A stretch of 20,808 bases of DNA. Source: a virus. The DNA lies in IMG/VR virus record IMGVR_UViG_3300047323_000503, positions 1-20,808 of that record, one strand, 5' to 3'. The notes under the pieces are model-generated. The model saw nothing but the letters and a program-made list of their open reading frames with translations. It was not told the origin of the DNA and searched no databases. A program made the position numbers and the translations under genes. Of the stretch, positions 2,598 through 14,335 are shown piece after piece (the stretch's first letter is position 1; every line of letters begins with the position of its first letter).

Positions 2598-2735
2598 ATG
2601 AGCCCCAACCAAGACCCCATCCGGTGCCGCCGTTGCGGCAGCACCGCTGGACCGTTCATCCGCCTGCCGGGTCGCCCGCTAGTCCGAAGGCCCCTCTGCG
2701 AAGACTGCCTCGACGAACAGGACGGAAAGAAGTGA
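2598..2735 (+). CDS. 45-residue zinc-ribbon-like protein
   Basis: An ATG at 2598 preceded by GGAG (2588-2591) opens a 45-codon frame ending in a GTGA overlap with the exonuclease gene. The product has two CxxC pairs, C10-R-R-C13 and C34-E-D-C37, separated by a basic Arg/Pro-rich loop, and ends DGKK. This is the pattern of a minimal four-Cys zinc ribbon. Similar tiny ribbons accompany DNA-metabolism genes in many actinophages. Its partner and function are unknown. It is short enough to be missed by standard gene calling. Confidence 0.75.
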   Translation: MSPNQDPIRCRRCGSTAGPFIRLPGRPLVRRPLCEDCLDEQDGKK

Positions 2736-3631
2736 CCACCACCCAGCCTCTGCCCCCGGCCGGCGTTCTCCTCGGCCACTTCGAGCCCGGCACCGATGCC
2801 TGGCACGCAGCTCGCGCTAACGGCATCGGCGGCAGCGAGATCGCCGCTGTCCTCGGCATCAGCCCCTACGAGTCCCCGTTCTCCCTGTGGCACCGCAAGC
2901 AGGGCGGCATCGGCCCCGTCGAAGAGACCGACGTCATGTACTGGGGCAAGCTCCACGAGCCCACCATCTGCGACGAGTTCGCCCGCCGCCACCCCGAACT
3001 CCTCGTCCTCCCGTCCGGCACGTACACGGCCAACGACATGCCGTGGTGGATCGTCAACCCCGACCGGCTCGGCTTCACCGCCGAAGGCGACCTCGAAGTC
3101 ATCGAAGCGAAGACCGCCCGCGACGACTACGAGTGGGGCGAAGAAGGCACCGACCAGGTCCCCGTCCACTACAAGGCACAGGTCCGCTGGTACTGCGCCG
3201 CACTGGCCGCCCGACGCGCCCGCATAGCCGTCCTCATCGGGGGCTCCGACTACCGCGAGTACATCGTCGAGACGGACGACGCCGACACCGAACTGATGCG
3301 GACCAGCGGCCAGGCGTTTATGGACTCCCTTGCCGCCGGCGTCGCCCCTCCGATCGACGGCCACACCGCCACCTACCAGGCAGTGAAGGCGCTACCGGAC
3401 GGCATGGACGACGTCGACATCCAAATCGACCTCGCCCTCGGCCAGCGCTACTTCGCTGCCCTAGCCGACTTCAAGGCCGCCGAGGAAGAGAAGCGCTGCG
3501 CCTCCGGTCTCGTCCTCGACCGAATTGGAACCGGCCGCCGCGCCGTGATCGGCGCCGACAAGGTCGCCACCCGCACCGTCCGCGCCGGCCGCACCTACTC
3601 ACTCCAGCCCGCACGCAATAGGAGCATCTGA
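2732..3631 (+). CDS. YqaJ/lambda-exonuclease family nuclease
   Basis: Predicted 5'-3' double-strand DNA exonuclease of the PD-(D/E)xK superfamily. It would resect DNA ends to give single strands for the RecT protein encoded next. Visible family features include the N-terminal GIGGSEIAAVLGISPY block (residues 31-46), W71-G-K-L-H-E76-P, the catalytic Asp in NPDR (D111), E125-A-K127 as the E-x-K pair, and Q150 in YKAQVRWY. At 299 residues it has the usual YqaJ length. The GTG at 2732 overlaps the preceding stop and gives the expected N-terminus; ATG codons further upstream would run through the zinc-ribbon gene. It joins recT by a TGATG overlap, so the two are coupled, as in most phage exonuclease/annealase pairs. 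Confidence 0.95.
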   Translation: MTTTQPLPPAGVLLGHFEPGTDAWHAARANGIGGSEIAAVLGISPYESPFSLWHRKQGGIGPVEETDVMYWGKLHEPTICDEFARRHPELLVLPSGTYTANDMPWWIVNPDRLGFTAEGDLEVIEAKTARDDYEWGEEGTDQVPVHYKAQVRWYCAALAARRARIAVLIGGSDYREYIVETDDADTELMRTSGQAFMDSLAAGVAPPIDGHTATYQAVKALPDGMDDVDIQIDLALGQRYFAALADFKAAEEEKRCASGLVLDRIGTGRRAVIGADKVATRTVRAGRTYSLQPARNRSI

Positions 3632-4476
3632 TGACCGAGACCGTCACCGGCGCCATCGCCGTCCGCGACAACGGACCCGCCGCACAGATCGAGCAGTACC
3701 GCGACGAGTACGCCGCCCTCATGCCGTCCCACGTCAACCCCGACCAGTGGGTTCGCATGGCCGTCGGCGCCATCCGCGGCGACGTCAAGCTCGTCCAGGC
3801 CGCACAGAACGACATCGGCGCGTTCCTCCGCGAACTCCGCACCGCCGCCCGCCTCGGCCTGGAGCCCGGCACCGAGCAGTTCTACCTGACCCCGCGCAAA
3901 GCCAAGGGCCGCATGGTCATCAAGGGCATCGTCGGCTACCAGGGCATCGTCGAACTCATCTACCGGGCCGGCGCCGTCTCCTCCGTCATCGTCGAAGTCG
4001 TCCGCACCAACGACTCGTTCCGGTACGTCATCGGCCGCGACGGCAAGCCCGTCCACGAGATCGACTGGTTCGGCGACGACCGCGGCGACATGGTCGGCGT
4101 CTACGCCTACGCCGTCATGAAAGACGGCGCCACCTCGAAGGTCGTCGTCCTCAACCGGCGGCAGGTCATGGAGGCCAAGGCCAAGTCCGACGGCCGGAAC
4201 TCCGAGTACTCCCCGTGGAACACCAACGAGGAGTCGATGTGGCTGAAGACCGCAGTCCGGCGCCTCGCCAAGTGGGTACCGACGTCCGCTGAGTACATGC
4301 GCGAGCAGCTCCGTGCCCAGGCCGAAGTCACTGGCGCGATCACCGGGACCGCTAATGCTCCGCTCCCGCCGCAGCCGTCCGTCGAGCTCGACGACGAAGA
4401 CGACGAGCCGGTCGAAGCCGAGCTGGAGCCCGAAGGCGGCTGGCCGGCCGCAGCACAGCCCGGCACCGCCGCGTAA
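3631..4476 (+). CDS. recT: RecT-family single-strand annealing protein
   Basis: Predicted single-strand DNA annealing protein acting with the preceding exonuclease in phage recombination. The 281-residue protein carries the RecT core over about residues 20-215: QFYLTPRKAKGRMVIKGIVGY followed by QGIVELIYRAG and, later, NEESMWLKTAVRRLAKWVPTS, all characteristic of RecT. The start ATG overlaps the exonuclease stop, with GGAG at 3621-3624. Residues from about 250 form a strongly acidic, Pro-rich tail (ELDDEDDEPVEAELEPEGGW) that may be disordered; by analogy with acidic tails on single-strand binding proteins it might contact partners, but that is inference. A stem-loop follows the gene. I see no SSB gene nearby. 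Confidence 0.95.
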   Translation: MTETVTGAIAVRDNGPAAQIEQYRDEYAALMPSHVNPDQWVRMAVGAIRGDVKLVQAAQNDIGAFLRELRTAARLGLEPGTEQFYLTPRKAKGRMVIKGIVGYQGIVELIYRAGAVSSVIVEVVRTNDSFRYVIGRDGKPVHEIDWFGDDRGDMVGVYAYAVMKDGATSKVVVLNRRQVMEAKAKSDGRNSEYSPWNTNEESMWLKTAVRRLAKWVPTSAEYMREQLRAQAEVTGAITGTANAPLPPQPSVELDDEDDEPVEAELEPEGGWPAAAQPGTAA

Positions 4477-8939: not shown

Positions 8940-8962
8940 AGGAAGGGAGGGGAGGGAACGTG

Positions 8963-9172
8963 TCAGGACTTCGACTGTGGGGCGATCTTCGCCACCCACT
9001 CGCGGGTGAAGCCGGTCAGCTTCGCCATGTGCGACGGGCCCTTCCCTTCGGCGCGCCCCTTCACGAGCAGGTCGCGCAGCTCTTCGTCAGCGCGCTTGAA
9101 GGCTTCCTCAGCCCGAGCGCGCTTCTTCGCTGCGGCCTGAATCTCCATGTCGAGGGTGTCCATGCAGTACAT
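8963..9172 (-). CDS. Small coiled-coil/HTH protein, about 69 aa
   Basis: Minus-strand gene between a shared terminator and a divergent promoter region. A charged helix (KKRARAEEAFKRADEELRDLLV) is followed by an HTH-like segment (MAKLTGFTREWVAKI) at the C-terminus. The start is uncertain: in-frame ATGs lie at 9277, 9250, 9172, 9163 and 9148 (5' ends), and none has a clear ribosome site. I choose 9172 because the longer forms would overlap the divergent fusion gene and its promoter. A helix-plus-HTH layout is shared with the minus-strand gene at 19776-20021. A regulator of the adjacent divergent gene is plausible but unproved. Confidence 0.75.
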   Translation of the reverse strand: MYCMDTLDMEIQAAAKKRARAEEAFKRADEELRDLLVKGRAEGKGPSHMAKLTGFTREWVAKIAPQSKS

Positions 9173-9200
9173 CGTGCCATGGATTGTCACGACCGCGCTA

Positions 9201-9253
9201 CGCGAACGCGCATTGTGGTCGCGAATCTCGACCGCGAACGCTATTCTCATCTC
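9201..9253 (+). promoter_or_regulatory. Leaderless promoter and candidate operator of the fusion gene
   Basis: TATTCT at 9242-9247 fits the TANNNT -10 consensus and ends six bases before the ATG at 9254, the spacing expected when transcription begins at the start codon. No Shine-Dalgarno sequence precedes that ATG. No good -35 is visible. The 9-bp sequence CGCGAACGC occurs at 9201-9209 and 9233-9241, 32 bp apart (three helical turns), the second copy touching the -10. The palindrome TCGCGA at 9219-9224 lies between them. Confidence 0.55.
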
Positions 9254-11086
9254 ATGCAGAGCGATTCCAGCCCTCATCCCTCGTCACTCCTGCGCGCCTT
9301 CCGGGCAAACCCGGACCGCCTCGACGCCCAGCGCAACCTCGCCAAGCACCTCCCCCTCCACTTCCCGATGCGCCGCCTGGAACGTGATGCCCCGACGGCG
9401 CAGCTGATGACAGTCGAAGAGAAGCGCCCCGTGGGCTGGCTCCCGCTCTGGCCGTACCTCTACCGCGCATACGACGCCGAGCTTCGACCGCTGTACATCG
9501 GCATCAGCAGCTGCTCACCCACCCGGCTCGACAATCACCGACGCCAGTCGGCGTGGTGGCCGCTGGCCGAGTACATCGCCATATCCGCCTATAGCACCGC
9601 CCGCGCGGTGGAAGAGGCGGAGCGTGCGGCCCTGCTGCACGAGCAGCCCCGCTTCAACAGGCGCGGGCTGCGCGGCCCGGCGAACCTCTCGATCCACGCT
9701 CACGGCGACCCGGAAGTAGCGGCAGCCCACTTGTTTCGCCAGGCGTCACCCCAGTTCGTGGCCGCCCTCGCGGACCTACTCGCACAGCCCGAGCGCTTCC
9801 CGCAGCCGACGCCGCCTCCGCCTGCCCGGTTCGCCTTGGCCCCCATGACCACCTCCACCAGCAAGGAGGACACCTTGACCACAGCGCTCGACCGTGCGCG
9901 TCAGCTCCTTGACCAGCCGCCGGCCGCCGTGCTTCCCGGCCAGCTCGCAGCACCCACCGGACCCCGCATCGGCTCCCTGTTCACCGGGACCGGCGTCTTC
10001 GACCTGGCCGTGATGGACGTGTTCGGCGGCGAGACCGTATGGCACTCCCAGTACGAGCCGCCCGACAGGAAGGGCCGGCCCGATACCAACCAGTACGCGG
10101 CAAAGATCCTCGCCCACCATTGGCCTGACGTTCCCAACCTCGGCGACATCACCGCCATCGACTGGGACGACGTCCTCGCCAAATACGGGCCTGTCGACAT
10201 CATCATCGGCGGCTTCCCGTGCACCGACGTCTCCACCGCCGGCGAGCGTGCCGGACTCACCTCCGAAACCCGCTCCGGCCTGTGGTCCCACATGGCCCAG
10301 GCAATCTCCATCCTCAAACCCGACCTGGTGGTTATCGAAAATGTCGAAGGGCTCCTCTCGGCGAAAGCTTCCAGCAACCTGGAACCCTGCCCGTACTGCG
10401 TGGGAGACGGACACGATCAGCCTCCACTGCGGGCACTTGGAGCCGTACTTGGAGACCTGGCCGTCCTCGGGTTCGATGCGGAATGGCAGGTGCTGGCCGC
10501 GTCCGAGGTCGATGCCGCCCACAAGCGCAAGCGCGTCATCATCTACGCCTGGCCGTCTGATGCCGACCCCGCGAACATCGGACACCAATGGGGCGGGGGC
10601 GCACGGCGACGGGGGCATGGATCTACGGACCGCGGTCTCACTGCTGCCCACACCGACAGCTTCATTCCCGGGAACGGCAGCGAACTTCCGGCCGGATGGA
10701 ACTCCATACAGCGAGGGGTACGGAATGACGCTCCTCGATGCAGTGCGACTTCTCCCGACGCCGACAGCCTCCGACGGCGAGCGGACATCCTCGACCTACG
10801 GCCGGGGCAACCCGACCTTGACTGGGGCGATTACGGACCCGCCATCCGACGGTGGGAAGCCACCCTCGGACGGCCCGTCCCCTGGCCCACTGACGCTCTG
10901 GGACGACTGACCCCCGTCTTCACCGAATGGCACATGGGCTACCCCGACGGCTGGGTCACCTGCACCCCCGGACTCACCCGCAACGCCATGCTCCGCGCCC
11001 TCGGAAACGGGGCTGTGCCGCTCCAGATGTCTGTCGGCATCCAGCTCCTCCGTGAGCGGGCCAACGGCATGCAGGCCGCCGCGTGA
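9254..11086 (+). CDS. GIY-YIG nuclease fused to C5-cytosine DNA methyltransferase, 610 aa
   Basis: One open frame joins two enzyme domains. Residues 62-137 are GIY-YIG: Y68-L-Y70, Y81-I-G83, R91, E123 and N135, the complete set of catalytic positions. A Pro-rich linker (about 175-235) leads to a Dcm-type methyltransferase: motif I FTGTG (243-247), motif IV GGFPC with nucleophile C323, motif VI E362-N-V, a CPYC insertion (379-382), motif VIII around Q412 and KRKR, and GNGAV (584-588). It would methylate cytosine at C5; the first domain could nick or cut DNA. The ATG at 9254 is chosen for its leaderless promoter; the open frame back to 8960 overlaps the minus-strand gene. Between residues 435 and 525 another frame carries family-like sequence (see findings). 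An internal ribosome site precedes the second domain. Gene fusion or read-through of two genes are the alternatives. Confidence 0.85.
   Translation: MQSDSSPHPSSLLRAFRANPDRLDAQRNLAKHLPLHFPMRRLERDAPTAQLMTVEEKRPVGWLPLWPYLYRAYDAELRPLYIGISSCSPTRLDNHRRQSAWWPLAEYIAISAYSTARAVEEAERAALLHEQPRFNRRGLRGPANLSIHAHGDPEVAAAHLFRQASPQFVAALADLLAQPERFPQPTPPPPARFALAPMTTSTSKEDTLTTALDRARQLLDQPPAAVLPGQLAAPTGPRIGSLFTGTGVFDLAVMDVFGGETVWHSQYEPPDRKGRPDTNQYAAKILAHHWPDVPNLGDITAIDWDDVLAKYGPVDIIIGGFPCTDVSTAGERAGLTSETRSGLWSHMAQAISILKPDLVVIENVEGLLSAKASSNLEPCPYCVGDGHDQPPLRALGAVLGDLAVLGFDAEWQVLAASEVDAAHKRKRVIIYAWPSDADPANIGHQWGGGARRRGHGSTDRGLTAAHTDSFIPGNGSELPAGWNSIQRGVRNDAPRCSATSPDADSLRRRADILDLRPGQPDLDWGDYGPAIRRWEATLGRPVPWPTDALGRLTPVFTEWHMGYPDGWVTCTPGLTRNAMLRALGNGAVPLQMSVGIQLLRERANGMQAAA
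9863..9877 (+). promoter_or_regulatory. Internal ribosome site and TTG start before the methyltransferase domain
   Basis: AAGGAGGA at 9863-9870 is followed five bases after its GGAGG core by an in-frame TTG (9875-9877, codon 208). An in-frame ATG at 9845 (codon 198) lies just upstream. Translation from the TTG would give a free methyltransferase of about 403 residues. This is the strongest Shine-Dalgarno match inside the gene. Confidence 0.6.
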
Positions 11087-11124
11087 CCCGCCCCCGGCCG
11101 CGACCGGCCCCCACCTGACGGCAC

Positions 11125-11142
11125 CGCGGCCCACAGGCCGTG
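11125..11142 (+). terminator. Weak stem-loop before the initiator gene
   Basis: Seven base pairs (one G-U) close a CACA loop at 11132-11135 in the 94-bp gap between the fusion gene and the replication initiator. No U-run. It may be a weak terminator or an incidental GC-rich fold. Confidence 0.35.
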
Positions 11143-11180
11143 TCCGGCAGACCTATCCACACCGCAGGAAAGAAGATCCC

Positions 11181-12137
11181 GTGAGCAAAGAGGCCATGGA
11201 CTGGGCGCTTGAATTCGCCCCGCCAATGCCGTCTCAGCTGGTCGCCACGCTGAGCGGACTCGCTCGGCATGCCGACAAGAAGGGCCGCGGCACCTATCCC
11301 TCTGTTGCTCGACTGGCCGCCTACGCCTGCAAGTCGGAGCGGTCTGTTCAACGGGACCTTGTCGAGCTCCGCAAGCTCGGGCTGATCCGCTACGGCGACC
11401 AGAGCAAGGCCAATCACCTCCCTGAAGGGAAGCGCCCGGAGGTCTACGACCTGGCCGTCGAGCGCACCGTTCCGGACGGCCGGGCTGGCAAGGATGAGGT
11501 GACGCGGGCGTCACTGGTGACGCTGACGTCGTCCCGTCGTCGCGGCGGGAAGAAGAAGCCCAGTTCAGACGAGTTCTCGGACTCCGGAACGGGTGACGTG
11601 GACGTCACCCCTGACGTCCACGTCACCGGTGACGCCGACGTCGCGGATGGGGTGACGTCCACGTCGCAGGAGGGGCGACGCCCACGTCACCCAAACCAAC
11701 TACCTGAACCAAAAGAAGAACCAAAAGACTCTGGCCCGCCTCCGGCGAGCGAGACCGATCCCGCCCCTCAGCCGCTCTTCGACTCGCCAGCCGCTCCGGC
11801 CGAGCCCACCGAAGAGCAGCAGCAGGAAACCGAGTTCGCCGCCTTCTACGCGGCCTACCCCCGCAAGGTCGCCAAGGGTGCAGCCCGCAAAGCATTCGCC
11901 GCCGCGGTCAAGCGCGGAGCGAAGCCGGCCGACCTTGCCGCTGCCGCCGTAGCGCACCGCGACTACTGGGCCCGCTGCAAGACCGAAGCCAAGTTCATCC
12001 CGTACCCGACGACCTGGCTCAACGGCGAGCGCTACGACGACGAGCTGCCCGCCCAGGCCAGCCACCGAGACGGCCCCGCCCCGACCGCCCCCCGCTACAT
12101 GAACGACGAGGAGAAGAAGCATGCACTCCGATTCTGA
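11181..12137 (+). CDS. Lambda-O-like replication initiator, 318 aa
   Basis: Predicted origin-binding protein that recruits the helicase through the loader. The GTG at 11181 follows AGGAAAG at normal spacing; upstream in-frame ATGs fall within the fusion gene. An N-terminal winged HTH covers about residues 20-75, with YPSVARLAAYACKSERSVQR (39-58) and the next helix LVELRKLGLI. Residues 106-215 are a low-complexity linker rich in Asp, Val, Thr, Pro and Glu. The C-terminal domain (217-290) contains FYAAYPRKVAKGAARKAF and FIPYPTTWLNGERYDDE, the signature shared by phage replisome organisers. The linker-coding DNA holds iterons, as in lambda O. The stop overlaps the loader ATG by 17 bases. DNA binding is inferred, not shown. 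Confidence 0.88.
   Translation: MSKEAMDWALEFAPPMPSQLVATLSGLARHADKKGRGTYPSVARLAAYACKSERSVQRDLVELRKLGLIRYGDQSKANHLPEGKRPEVYDLAVERTVPDGRAGKDEVTRASLVTLTSSRRRGGKKKPSSDEFSDSGTGDVDVTPDVHVTGDADVADGVTSTSQEGRRPRHPNQLPEPKEEPKDSGPPPASETDPAPQPLFDSPAAPAEPTEEQQQETEFAAFYAAYPRKVAKGAARKAFAAAVKRGAKPADLAAAAVAHRDYWARCKTEAKFIPYPTTWLNGERYDDELPAQASHRDGPAPTAPRYMNDEEKKHALRF
11498..11691 (+). repeat. Seven 18-bp dyad iterons: candidate replication origin
   Basis: Seven copies of an imperfect 18-mer, consensus GGTGACGNNNACGTCACC (two 8-nt arms around 2 nt), start at 11498, 11516, 11592, 11610, 11628, 11651 and 11674. Copies 1-2 and 3-5 are head to tail at exactly 18 bp; copies 6 and 7 are each separated by 5 bp (23-bp step). 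Copy 3 (11592-11609) is a perfect inverted repeat, GGTGACGT-GG-ACGTCACC. The array lies inside the initiator gene, in the part coding for its linker. This is the layout of the lambda origin. Confidence 0.85.
11692..11730 (+). other. A-rich stretch beside the iterons: candidate DNA-unwinding element
   Basis: Directly after the last iteron the plus strand becomes A-rich; by my count 24 of 40 bases (11691-11730) are A or T in otherwise strongly GC-rich DNA. It contains the exact 10-mer GAACCAAAAG twice, at 11706-11715 and 11718-11727, a 12-bp period. An A/T-rich segment flanking iterons is where lambda and many plasmid origins melt. Confidence 0.6.
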
Positions 12138-12738
12138 CGGCCCCGACCTCCGCAAGGAGTGGCTGCAGCAGCGCACCTACGGCGCCCTGACCCGCTTCCA
12201 CGACACAACGCCACTGATCTACCGGAAAGCGATCGACGTACCCCAGGAGGTCACCGACTGGGTGGCCGGCTGGGGCGGCAGCAGCCTGTTTCTCACCGGT
12301 GCGATCGGTGTCGGCAAGACCCACACGGCGTGGGAGACGTGCCGCCGCTGGCTGAAGGCGTTCTACGGCCCGGACCGCCCGTGGAACGGGGCCGCGAACG
12401 TCTACACCTACCGGTCGACCGCCCTGTTCGATGCTCTGCGCCCCGACGGGCCGGACGAGGTTCGCCGCACCCTGATCAAGACGCTGCAGGAAGCTGAACT
12501 GGTCTACATCGACGACCTGGCCGCGGCGAAGGTCACCGAGTGGACGCAGGAGCGCCTGTTCGAGATCTTCGACGAGCGGTACATCAACCGACGGCCCGTC
12601 ATCGTCACCAGCGATGTCCTGCCGCCCGAGCTTGGACCGGTCACCGGCCCGCGGGTTGCTTCCCGTCTCGGCGAGATGTGCGGCCCGAGCGTCGTCCTCA
12701 TGGAGGGCGACGACCGCCGGCGGGGAGCTGCCGCATGA
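12121..12738 (+). CDS. DnaC-like AAA+ helicase loader, 205 aa
   Basis: Predicted ATPase that loads the replicative helicase onto the origin. Visible AAA+ elements are Walker A GAIGVGKT (60-67), Walker B LVYIDD (127-132), sensor 1 VIVTSD (160-165) and an arginine-finger-like RVASRLGEM (178-186). The length and order match phage and DnaC/IstB-like loaders. The ATG at 12121 follows GGAGAAGAAGC and overlaps the initiator gene by 17 bases; the stop overlaps the next ATG. The position between an O-like initiator and DnaB supports loading over transposase-helper (IstB) function; no transposase is nearby. Confidence 0.92.
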   Translation: MHSDSDGPDLRKEWLQQRTYGALTRFHDTTPLIYRKAIDVPQEVTDWVAGWGGSSLFLTGAIGVGKTHTAWETCRRWLKAFYGPDRPWNGAANVYTYRSTALFDALRPDGPDEVRRTLIKTLQEAELVYIDDLAAAKVTEWTQERLFEIFDERYINRRPVIVTSDVLPPELGPVTGPRVASRLGEMCGPSVVLMEGDDRRRGAAA

Positions 12739-12974
12739 ACGCCTACCCGCCCGCCGATGACCGGCTGAAGCACCTCCTTGCCCAGGAGATCAACCTCAGC
12801 GTCGACACCTGGAAGCTCGCGTTCTGGATCGCCGACGGCATCGTCAAGTCCCCCGAGATCCGCGCCGAGCTGGAGCGCATCGCCGCCGCACACACCGCCG
12901 GCCAGCCCTGCGGAGACCGCCACTGCCGGCACTGCTGGAACGCCCGCCTCGCCGATCAGGAGAACAGCGCATGA
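12735..12974 (+). CDS. Hypothetical Cys-motif protein between loader and helicase, 79 aa
   Basis: Not recognised. ATGA overlaps join it to the loader gene before and the helicase gene after. A helical body of about 50 residues (KHLLAQEINLSVDTWKLAFW and beyond) ends in CGDRHCRHCW with C59, C64 and C67 plus two His, a possible metal site. Being wedged between loader and helicase it may assist replication; this rests on position alone. Confidence 0.8.
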   Translation: MNAYPPADDRLKHLLAQEINLSVDTWKLAFWIADGIVKSPEIRAELERIAAAHTAGQPCGDRHCRHCWNARLADQENSA

Positions 12975-14335
12975 CCACCGACATGTGGGAAACCCCCGTC
13001 GACGACCAGTCCACCCGCGCCAACCCGGCCGCCGCCGCGGAACGAATCATCGCCGCTTCCGCGATGGCCCGCCCGGACCTGATCGACGAGCTGGCCGCCG
13101 AGTTCGACCCCGCCGACATTCAGGACGACCGGCTCCGCTGGGTATGGCACGCCGTCGACGAGATCCGGCAGAACCTCACCCAGGGCGAGATCCGGTGGGA
13201 GGCCGTCGACCGCCAGCTGCAAGCGTGGAAGGCGAACGGCTACATGCCGATCGCACCGCTCGACACCATCGCCCTGTCCGTCCTGTACGACGAGGCCGAG
13301 ACCAGCTACTCCGGTGCCGCGTACTGGGCGAAGACCGTCACGACCGAGTCGGTCCGCCGCCGCTACACCGGGCTCGGCGCCGACATCAGCCTCCGCGGCC
13401 GGTCCGCCGGCTTCGACGCCGAGACCGACATCGCCGCCGCACAAGACGCCCTCGACGGCCTTGCCCGCAACGAGAAGACCGACAAGACCAAGCTCGTCAG
13501 CGAGATCATCGGCGCCGCCCTCGAACGAGCCGTCACCAAACCGTCGAACGAGGACCGGGTCCCCACCGGATTCGTGGACCTCGACGTCATGTTCAGCGGC
13601 GGGTTCGCCCCCGGCCAGATGGTCGTTGTCGCCGCCCGGCCCGGCATCGGCAAGACCACCCTCGGCCTCGGGCTCGCAAGGGCCGCCGCAATCAAAAACG
13701 GGCTGCCCGTCCTCGTTGAATCCCTCGAAATGGGCGAAGAGGAACTCACCAACAGCATCCTCTCCGCCGAAGCCCGCATCGGCCTCCACCACATCAAGCA
13801 AGGCACCACCGATGACGCCGGTGTCGTCCGCGGCGCCCGCGCCATCGAGAAGATGAACGCAGCGCCGCTGTACCTCAGCGACGAATCCGACCTCAGCCTC
13901 CCCATGCTCCGCGGCAAGGTCCGACACCTCGTGCGGACCGCCGGGCTCCGCATGGTCGTCATCGACTACATCCAGCTCATGCAGGCCCCCAAGGCCGAGA
14001 CCCGGCAGGCCGAAGTCGCGAAGCTCAGCCGCGGGCTAAAGCTCATGGCCAAAGAGTTCGGGATCACCGTCGTCGTCCTCGCCCAGCTCAACCGTGGCCC
14101 CGAACAGCGCACCGACAAGAAGCCGATGAAGTCGGACCTCCGGGAGTCCGGGGCGATCGAGCAGGACGCCGACATCGTGATCCTCCTGCACCGAGAGGAC
14201 GCCTACGACAAGGAATCCGCGCGGGCCGGTGAAGCCGACTTCATCGTCGACAAGCACCGCGGGGGGCCGACAGGCATCGTGACCACCGCCGCACAGCTGC
14301 ACTATTCGCAGTTCGTCGACATGGCTGGCGTATGA
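12971..14335 (+). CDS. dnaB: DnaB-type replicative DNA helicase
   Basis: Hexameric 5'-3' helicase of the RecA-fold superfamily 4 that would unwind the phage replication fork. The 454-residue protein has the expected two parts: an N-terminal helical domain (about 17-130) and the helicase core from about 195. Motifs seen are TGFVDLDVMFSGG, Walker A ARPGIGKTT (222-230), ESLEM (250-254), Walker B MVVIDYIQLM (328-337), LAQLNR (370-375), DLRESGAIEQDAD (389-401) and the DKHRGGPTG end with K428 and R430. No intein or truncation is apparent. The start ATG overlaps the preceding stop; the stop overlaps the next ATG. With the initiator and loader upstream it completes an initiation set. Confidence 0.97.
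   Translation: MTTDMWETPVDDQSTRANPAAAAERIIAASAMARPDLIDELAAEFDPADIQDDRLRWVWHAVDEIRQNLTQGEIRWEAVDRQLQAWKANGYMPIAPLDTIALSVLYDEAETSYSGAAYWAKTVTTESVRRRYTGLGADISLRGRSAGFDAETDIAAAQDALDGLARNEKTDKTKLVSEIIGAALERAVTKPSNEDRVPTGFVDLDVMFSGGFAPGQMVVVAARPGIGKTTLGLGLARAAAIKNGLPVLVESLEMGEEELTNSILSAEARIGLHHIKQGTTDDAGVVRGARAIEKMNAAPLYLSDESDLSLPMLRGKVRHLVRTAGLRMVVIDYIQLMQAPKAETRQAEVAKLSRGLKLMAKEFGITVVVLAQLNRGPEQRTDKKPMKSDLRESGAIEQDADIVILLHREDAYDKESARAGEADFIVDKHRGGPTGIVTTAAQLHYSQFVDMAGV

What the first reader, a model, noticed from the sequence alone, without database searches (positions are those of the whole stretch)
11498..11691. Lambda-type origin: seven 18-bp dyad iterons inside the initiator gene
Seen directly: seven copies of GGTGACGNNNACGTCACC in strict register (18-bp steps, then 23-bp steps), one a perfect inverted repeat, all in the part of the initiator gene coding for the linker between the DNA-binding and loader-contact domains. 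Known: lambda O is organised the same way, with iterons in its own linker-coding sequence. Inference: this is the replication origin and the N-terminal winged HTH binds these sites as a dimer. The array is larger than lambda's four sites, and its two groups with 18- and 23-bp steps could give two binding modes. I know of no described Streptomyces phage origin with this exact plan.
Basis: partly seen in the sequence, partly recalled or inferred. Interest (0 to 1): 0.85.

Follow-up and report, generated by a model that had tools for sequence, protein, structure and literature searches.

The report
Phage replication origin inside initiator gene
A Streptomyces-type phage carries what is very probably its DNA replication start point inside the gene for its own starter protein, as seven mirror-symmetric docking sites followed by an easily melted stretch, and many other phages share this layout with different docking sequences.

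Summary
They lie in the linker-coding part of an HTH_36 initiator gene followed by DnaC-like loader and DnaB-like helicase genes. Close relatives keep them. Synonymous divergence falls from 0.33 to 0.06-0.08 over the sites and over an AT-rich tract directly 3' of site 7, but not over the spacer between the groups. In two relatives 14 and 12 of 14 half-sites have switched together with recognition-helix residue 57. An intragenic replication origin is by far the best reading; nothing was tested at the bench. It works like lambda ori but is not a lambda O member: the DNA-binding domain is HTH_36, not Phage_rep_O, and the loader is DnaC-like. New here: the 17/18-bp then 22/23-bp layout recurs in other HTH_36 initiator genes, and a strand-oriented tandem AACCRTCM repeat at 10-12 bp is strongly associated with such genes (57 of 80 scanned loci, control 2 of 80), in all three frames. 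The window has only a degenerate copy of it.

The parts
11181..12137 (+). replication initiator gene (GTG start, 318 aa); HTH_36 N-terminus, disordered linker, helical C-terminus
   Evidence: PF13730, 7.5e-09; phrog_270 2e-29, phrog_1032 1.7e-22; AlphaFold2
11259..11387 (+). HTH_36 domain coding segment (aa 27-69); recognition-helix residue Q57 coded at 11349-11351
11484..11750 (+). linker coding segment (aa 102-190), mostly predicted disordered, holding all iterons
   Evidence: pLDDT below 50 at 102-170, 178-185 and 187-189
11498..11515 (+). iteron 1 GGTGACGCGGGCGTCACT
11516..11533 (+). iteron 2 GGTGACGCTGACGTCGTC, abuts iteron 1
11592..11609 (+). iteron 3 GGTGACGTGGACGTCACC, perfect 7+7 inverted repeat
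11610..11627 (+). iteron 4 CCTGACGTCCACGTCACC, abuts iteron 3
11628..11645 (+). iteron 5 GGTGACGCCGACGTCGCG, abuts iteron 4; first of three sites at 23-bp steps
11651..11668 (+). iteron 6 GGTGACGTCCACGTCGCA, 23-bp step
11674..11691 (+). iteron 7 GGCGACGCCCACGTCACC, 23-bp step, next to the AT-rich tract
11692..11732 (+). candidate DNA unwinding element: AT-rich, T-poor tract; the lowest-GC 40-mer of the gene is 11693-11732; AACC at 11694, 11707, 11719 (spacing 13, 12)
   Evidence: (synonymous divergence 0.079); unwinding role is inference
11811..11978 (+). C-terminal helical domain (aa 211-266), inferred loader/helicase contact
   Evidence: the function is inference
12121..12738 (+). DnaC-like helicase loader gene
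   Evidence: phrog_50 6.7e-29
12971..14335 (+). DnaB-like replicative helicase gene
   Evidence: (DnaB_C 4.1e-82)

Best explanation
This is the phage's replication origin, placed inside its initiator gene. Proposed mechanism: (1) the N-terminal winged-HTH domain of the initiator binds each 18-bp dyad as a dimer. (2) Seven sites, abutting ones distal and 23-bp-spaced ones proximal, assemble a nucleoprotein complex. (3) This strains and opens the AT-rich tract directly 3' of site 7. (4) The initiator, or a partner, holds one melted strand through the AACC-type repeats. (5) The C-terminal domain brings in the DnaC-like loader with the DnaB-like helicase, and forks start. Shown by sequence: gene identity, layout, DNA-level constraint on the sites and the tract, and switching of the sites together with a recognition-helix residue. 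Inferred: dimer binding, opening, strand capture and loading.
For: Array beyond chance. Gene context initiator-loader-helicase. All seven sites kept at identical steps in relatives such as L003, L014, L018, L033 and L063, and eight sites in L027, L060 and L064. Synonymous shuffles reach the observed site number 0 of 500 times in each of 14 genes (L022 gives the same protein as L014, and L024 the same as L023). Synonymous divergence over 13 genes is 0.057 (sites 1-2), 0.074 (sites 3-7) and 0.079 (tract), against 0.329 (HTH) and 0.335 (spacer between the groups). L035 has G at position 3 in 7 of 7 sites and C at position 16 in 7 of 7, L105 in 7 of 7 and 5 of 7; both have R57, whereas the 11 other genes compared have Q57 (10) or E57 (1) and no G at position 3. 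The lowest-GC 40-mer of the gene starts within 20 nt of the end of the last site in 27 of 34 genes, window and lambda among them. In six larger phage records the core pattern is dense in the initiator array and otherwise scattered in the listed matches (list cut, G002 not shown), except for a second copy at a record end in G1089. Precedent: the rep region of pPR9, whose initiator has a pfam13730 N-terminus, supports autonomous replication (PMC5703833, passages).
Against: No binding, opening or replication start was measured. GC skew over the window shows no switch at the array, though co-directional genes confound it. L033 has E57 and keeps GGTGACG sites, so residue 57 is not a simple code, and the R57 case rests on two genes. 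The AT minimum lies elsewhere in 7 of 34 genes, L034, L035 and L066 among them. The window's AACC repeat is degenerate and weak alone (p=0.035), and L035 has no AACC cluster (p=0.81). Several distant relatives show no palindromic array above shuffles: L004, L006, L009, L011, L045, L047, L050, L052, L054, L040, L042, L048, L061, L062 and 7 of the 12 records L073-L084.
Confidence: 0.87

Rival explanations
1. The array is an operator: the initiator binds it only to control transcription of its own or downstream genes, and replication starts elsewhere.
For: Winged-HTH domain with weak fold matches to MarR- and Fur-type regulators; no direct origin mapping.
Against: The first site begins at nt 318 of the gene, not upstream of it; the array ends at an AT-rich tract kept from synonymous change; the plan matches lambda's annotated ori iterons; loader and helicase genes follow.
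Confidence: 0.07
2. The repeats are a by-product of a repetitive linker peptide (GDVDV/GVT type) in a GC-rich genome, without a DNA-level role.
For: Synonymous shuffles still leave 1.7 to 3.7 sites on average.
Against: 0 of 500 shuffles reach the observed number in each of 14 genes; three codon phases are used; synonymous divergence is 4- to 6-fold lower over sites and tract than over the HTH part and the spacer; half-sites switch symmetrically in L035 and L105.
Confidence: 0.02
3. The sites are mainly a copy-control, partition or incompatibility array bound by the initiator, and the tract with the nearest sites alone is the origin core.
For: The distal pair is 58 bp away; in Stx phages the two distal iterons are bound weakly yet needed for transformation by the plasmid (PMC7466680, passages).
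Against: Sites 5-7 run up to the tract; both groups are similarly protected from synonymous change (0.057 and 0.074).
Confidence: 0.04

Closest known systems
Phage lambda ori / O protein (Phage_rep_O, PF04492)
   Same: 18-bp iterons with dyad symmetry inside the initiator gene (annotated at 39034, 39054, 39078, 39101; steps 20, 24, 23), AT-rich tract directly 3'. O proteins exist as dimers (PMC7466680, passages). That gene P next to it is the helicase loader is recalled.
   Different: DNA-binding domain family differs; seven sites with 18- and 23-bp steps; different iteron sequence; loader DnaC-like; lambda's tract has no AACC.
Stx lambdoid phage origins (P27, 933W)
   Same: More than four iterons in gene O (six); the four near the AT-rich region bound strongly, the two distal ones weakly bound yet needed (PMC7466680, passages).
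   Different: O proteins very close to lambda O according to that paper; other sites and steps.
pPR9-type staphylococcal chimeric Rep (pfam13730 N-terminus) and RepA_N plasmids such as pSK41
   Same: pSK41: Rep boxes and origin inside the rep gene, coding a linker that is dispensable. pPR9: pfam13730 N-terminus in place of RepA_N, and its rep region supports autonomous replication (PMC5703833, passages).
   Different: Plasmids of staphylococci; the pSK41 C-terminus contacts DnaG. The pPR9 sequence was not fetched here, so its iterons were not compared.
HTH_36 phage and plasmid initiators (phrog_270, phrog_1032, phrog_391): JBD68, phiV10, Edno5, Arthrobacter phages, Streptomyces plasmid pCQ4
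   Same: Related N-terminus; in-gene repeats, often at 22-24 bp, and AACC units after them in many.
   Different: Iteron sequences differ by lineage; C-terminal domains differ (lambda-O-like in Edno5, DnaT in phiV10).
RK2 oriV / TrfA and F oriS / RepE
   Same: Iterons beside an AT-rich region with tandem repeats (13-mers in RK2, 8-mers in F); Rep binds one strand of it (PMC4081077, passages).
   Different: Another Rep family, and origin not inside the rep gene (both recalled); strand binding in the phage system is only inferred.

Membership tests
Lambda O / Phage_rep_O | PF04492 DNA-binding domain | tested here: not met
   window protein hits only PF13730 at E up to 0.01; lambda O hits PF04492
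Lambda O / Phage_rep_O | dyad iterons within the initiator gene's linker-coding part | tested here: met
Lambda O / Phage_rep_O | AT-rich tract adjacent to the last iteron | tested here: met
Lambda O / Phage_rep_O | P-type helicase loader next to the initiator | tested here: not met
   12121-12738 is DnaC-like, phrog_50
Lambda O / Phage_rep_O | dimer binding, opening of the AT-rich tract | not testable with these tools
   needs purified protein
HTH_36 phage initiators (phrog_270/1032) | PF13730 N-terminus and phrog_270/1032 match over most of the length | tested here: met
HTH_36 phage initiators (phrog_270/1032) | tandem AACCRTCM tract 3' of the iterons (proposed here, not an established criterion) | tested here: inconclusive
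   window has AACC x3 without RTCM, single-gene p=0.035; canonical form in relative L105
RepA_N plasmid initiators | RepA_N domain (pfam06970) | tested here: not met
   no such hit (E up to 0.01)
Iteron plasmid Rep (Rep_3, two winged-helix domains) | Rep_3 domain | tested here: not met
   no such hit (E up to 0.01)
Iteron plasmid Rep (Rep_3, two winged-helix domains) | strand-specific ssDNA binding in the DUE | not testable with these tools
   needs an ssDNA binding assay

The most novel reading that the evidence does not exclude
HTH_36 phage initiators use a two-key origin. The double-strand key (palindromic iterons plus recognition helix) changes freely between lineages, while a second, strand-oriented key, a tandem AACCRTCM repeat at 10-12 bp directly 3' of the iterons, is kept across many phages in all reading frames and with different C-terminal domains. 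It would serve as the single-strand capture element for helicase loading. The 17/18-bp distal and 22/23-bp proximal iteron steps would be a conserved geometry that points the complex at that strand.
Probability: 0.5. Interest if true: 0.8.

Novelty: new variant of a known kind. Interest (0 to 1): 0.62.

Why it matters
If true, origins of a large group of phages can be read straight from initiator genes. Initiator specificity could be studied through natural pairs (Q57 with GGTGACG sites, R57 with GGGGACG or GCGGACG sites). The AACC tract would be a sequence-defined single-strand element in phage origins, comparable to RK2's 13-mers, and a directly testable step in helicase loading. It would also explain how these linkers evolve: the peptide follows the DNA code.

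Tried and rejected
Lambda O membership: rejected on Pfam family and loader type. Linker-peptide explanation: rejected. GC skew as origin evidence: no switch at the array, uninformative. Structured RNA: no Rfam hit at gathering threshold in 10900-12300. Solved-structure relatives by sequence: none at E up to 1. Fold search: no match at E 0.001 or better; the top 50 are mostly winged-HTH regulators, with 4pt7 ('Structure of initiator') and 4pta ('Structure of MDR initiator') among them, which I recall as staphylococcal RepA. A universal residue-57 code: rejected, because L033 has E57 with GGTGACG sites, and Q at the matching helix position goes with GGGGACT-type sites in pCQ4 and GTGCAAC-type in JBD68. 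The single-gene AACC test is weak: 7 of 36 genes at p<0.02 against 1 of 36 for the GGTT control, so the claim rests on the collection scan and its reversed-pattern control. Literature: the ten searches made listed no paper whose title or abstract start describes the AACC tandem repeat, 15 of 365 papers holding any of the letter strings were listed. Most subscription papers are not held, and the pZL12 paper was not held. Of six papers I saw passages only; of all others only listings.

First-pass errors: one search used a start codon one base off (its phases are void, corrected). In one search seven loci from minus-strand genome hits (L035, L036, L038, L040, L041, L042, L048) were read on the wrong strand; re-read. 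In some searches the printed gap from last site to AACC includes the first two letters of AACC; gaps in this report are corrected by 2.

Rows dropped or duplicated: L001, L002 and L013 are the window; L016, L031 and L067 repeat L003; L032 and L044 repeat L014, and L022 gives the same protein as L014; L028-L030 repeat L010, L009 and L007; L055-L059, L065 and L068 repeat earlier contigs; L024 gives the same protein as L023. L015 (32 residues matched, MAG) was not analysed. L050 is read as a 105-aa ORF only. Step and phase counts are given for 53 genes and for 39 clusters at 60% identity. The search model h2 used was trained partly on the scan's own ORFs; the model made only from ten earlier proteins already finds 53 ORFs at E 1e-4.

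Full report
Observation. The seven sites stand at 11498, 11516, 11592, 11610, 11628, 11651 and 11674 on the + strand, each with 0 to 2 mismatches to GGTGACGNNNACGTCACC. The window has 21 matches with up to 3 mismatches on both strands, against a shuffle mean of 1.94 and maximum of 9 (0 of 100 shuffles reach it). The steps are 18, 76, 18, 18, 23, 23. The first two sites form one group; the other five form a second group after a 58-bp gap. Sites 3, 4 and 5 abut one another, as do sites 1 and 2.

Gene and surroundings. The sites lie in 11181-12137, a 318-aa protein with an HTH_36 domain at aa 27-69 and matches to phage replication initiators phrog_270, phrog_1032 and phrog_391. Next come a DnaC-like loader gene (12121-12738) and a DnaB-like helicase gene (12971-14335). 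AlphaFold2 on 21 sequences gives a confident winged-HTH (10-residue block means of at least 90 for aa 21-90), a mostly disordered linker (aa 102-189) and a helical C-terminus at 211-266; overall mean pLDDT is only 65 and pTM 0.35. The iterons are coded in the disordered linker. The window is a virus record of 20,808 bases, and a close relative lies in Streptomyces sparsogenes.

DNA-level constraint. Close relatives keep the array. L003, L014, L018-L021, L023, L025, L026, L033 and L063 have seven sites at steps 18, 76, 18, 18, 23, 23; in L017 the de novo detector missed site 2, which the consensus scan finds. L027, L060 and L064 have eight at 18, 63, 19, 18, 23, 22, 23; L034 and L066 show seven with the detector. 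When codons are redrawn for the same protein, 0 of 500 copies reach the observed number in each of 14 genes (two of the 14 repeat another's protein). Among 13 genes, codon pairs coding the same residue differ in 0.329 of cases in the HTH part, 0.418 in aa 96-105, 0.057 in sites 1-2, 0.335 in the spacer between the groups, 0.074 in sites 3-7 and 0.079 in the tract after site 7. The site starts use all three codon phases. These genes are related, so the counts are not independent.

Concerted switch. In L035 (63% identical to the window over aa 1-95) all seven sites have G at position 3 and C at position 16, at steps 18, 97, 18, 18, 23, 23. In L105 (68%) seven of seven have G and five of seven have C, at steps 18, 64, 18, 18, 23, 22. 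Both carry R at residue 57 of the recognition helix. Eleven other genes compared have Q57 (10) or E57 (1, L033); none has G at position 3, and C at position 16 occurs only at one site each in L027, L060, L064 and L066. L035 and L105 are 65% identical to each other. This is what coevolution of a binding domain and its sites looks like, but it rests on two genes, and L033 shows the residue is not a simple code.

AT-rich tract. The lowest-GC 40-mer of the window gene is 11693-11732, one nt past the end of site 7; in lambda the offset from the last annotated iteron is two nt. It starts within 20 nt of the end of the last site in 27 of 34 genes examined, and elsewhere in L034, L035, L066, L007, L043, L053 and L037. 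The window tract reads CAAACCAACTACCTGAACCAAAAGAAGAACCAAAAGACT, with AACC at 11694, 11707 and 11719.

Distant relatives. Genes found by protein similarity in phages and plasmids of Arthrobacter, Gordonia, Pseudomonas, Streptomyces, Amycolatopsis, Pseudonocardia and Thermobispora have repeats in the same place with other sequences, often at 22-24 bp: GGGGACT..AGTCCCC in pCQ4 and several Streptomyces replicons, GGGGTCT in Pseudonocardia, GTGCGAC in Thermobispora, GTGCAAC in JBD68. Not all show a palindromic array above shuffles: L004, L006, L009, L011, L045, L047, L050, L052, L054 did not, L040, L042, L048 not, L061 and L062 not. Among L073-L084 five of twelve exceeded all 30 shuffles (L077, L079, L081, L083, L084).

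A second repeat. By eye, many of these genes carry AACC units at about 11-13 bp directly after the iterons. The single-gene test is weak: 7 of 36 genes at p<0.02, against 1 of 36 for GGTT; the window itself has p=0.035 and L035 p=0.81. In 57 of 80 loci the motif lies in an ORF with the initiator HTH (E<1e-3), and it is sense in 71 of 71 ORF matches. With the same pattern reversed, 2 of 80 loci do. Initiator ORFs make up 6.3% of the bases of the 80 loci. In the single-ORF set, 53 of 82 ORFs match a model made only from ten earlier proteins (E 1e-4), 11 of the rest are low-complexity, and several of the other 18 look like cut-off initiators by eye. Pfam finds HTH_36 in 40 of 40 proteins scanned (the window plus 39 cluster representatives already chosen by that model). 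Codon phases 1, 2, 0 of the motif hold 22, 18, 13 of 53 genes and 19, 9, 11 of 39 clusters, so it is not one peptide. Unit spacing is 11 (60), 12 (49), 10 (13) and six others once or twice each (the pattern itself allows only 10-12 between its first three units). The tract is in the lowest 5% of GC 40-mers of its gene in 46 of 53 genes and 33 of 39 clusters.

Two-step geometry. Of those 53 genes, 41 have a palindromic array at p<0.05 between the HTH and the first AACC (29 of 39 clusters). Steps up to 30 bp, one gene per cluster: 3 x2, 14 x3, 15 x4, 16 x1, 17 x10, 18 x5, 19 x3, 21 x6, 22 x10, 23 x16, 24 x4, 26 x2, 27 x1, so peaks at 17-18 and 22-23. In 10 arrays with both classes, the 21-24 bp steps lie on the AACC side in 9; L133 is the exception. 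After correction by 2 nt, the gap from last site to first AACC is 1-4 nt in 26 of the 41. The window has the same order (18, then 23) and a 2-nt gap.

Mechanism. Best reading: initiator dimers load the iterons, the tract opens, one strand is held, and the C-terminus delivers loader and helicase. Dimer binding, opening and strand capture are inferred from lambda and Stx O proteins (PMC7466680, passages) and from RK2 TrfA and F RepE, which bind iterons together with one strand of the repeat-bearing AT-rich DNA (PMC4081077, passages; loop-back model in PMC10797057, passages). The AACC repeat goes with the HTH_36 N-terminus and different C-termini: phiV10 has a DnaT C-terminus, Edno5 a lambda-O-like one with a degenerate tract. 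One hit, L154, is another initiator type. What binds the repeat is unknown.

Known or new. In-gene origins are known in lambda, Stx phages (six iterons) and RepA_N plasmids, and the rep region of pPR9, with a pfam13730 N-terminus, replicates autonomously (PMC5703833, passages). By layout the window belongs to that kind; by family it is not a lambda O. The AACC tandem repeat and the two-step geometry as family-wide features did not appear in the listings of ten literature searches, which cover only openly licensed papers.

Noticed in passing
8960-11086: C5 methylase ORF in which LLPTPTAS-type repeats (about 10600-10910, by eye) read in another frame (ORF 10248-10910), and whose N-terminal part matches phage endonuclease families (phrog_16880, phrog_3312): possible frameshift and fusion.
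   Followed up: no
2624-4476: RecE/YqaJ-like exonuclease followed by an ORF (3631-4476) that looks RecT-like by eye, upstream of the replication genes.
   Followed up: no
L077 (Edwardsiella phage Edno5) 1147-1989: Initiator with HTH_36 N-terminus and lambda-O-type C-terminus (phrog_277 4.2e-62) next to an annotated replication protein P: natural combination of another origin-binding module with a lambda-type loader-contact module.
   Followed up: partly
L154 6540-7313: Tandem AACCATCAAGC repeat in a different initiator family (phrog_5810, with DnaD-like matches), so the repeat may not be limited to HTH_36.
   Followed up: partly
L060 contig (G1089) 1199-1398 and 68550-68631: Iteron matches near both ends of the 68,642-base record with the same spacing, suggesting terminal redundancy of the record.
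   Followed up: no
L035 gene, nt 533-566: Instead of AACC, the tract holds a 12-bp tandem AAAGGTCCTTTG, in the same gene whose iterons switched to G/C.
   Followed up: no
L027 and L033 against the window, C-terminal third: Initiators with a similar HTH and array carry a C-terminal part that looks unrelated to the window's, as if the origin-binding half is exchanged as a block (by eye).
   Followed up: no
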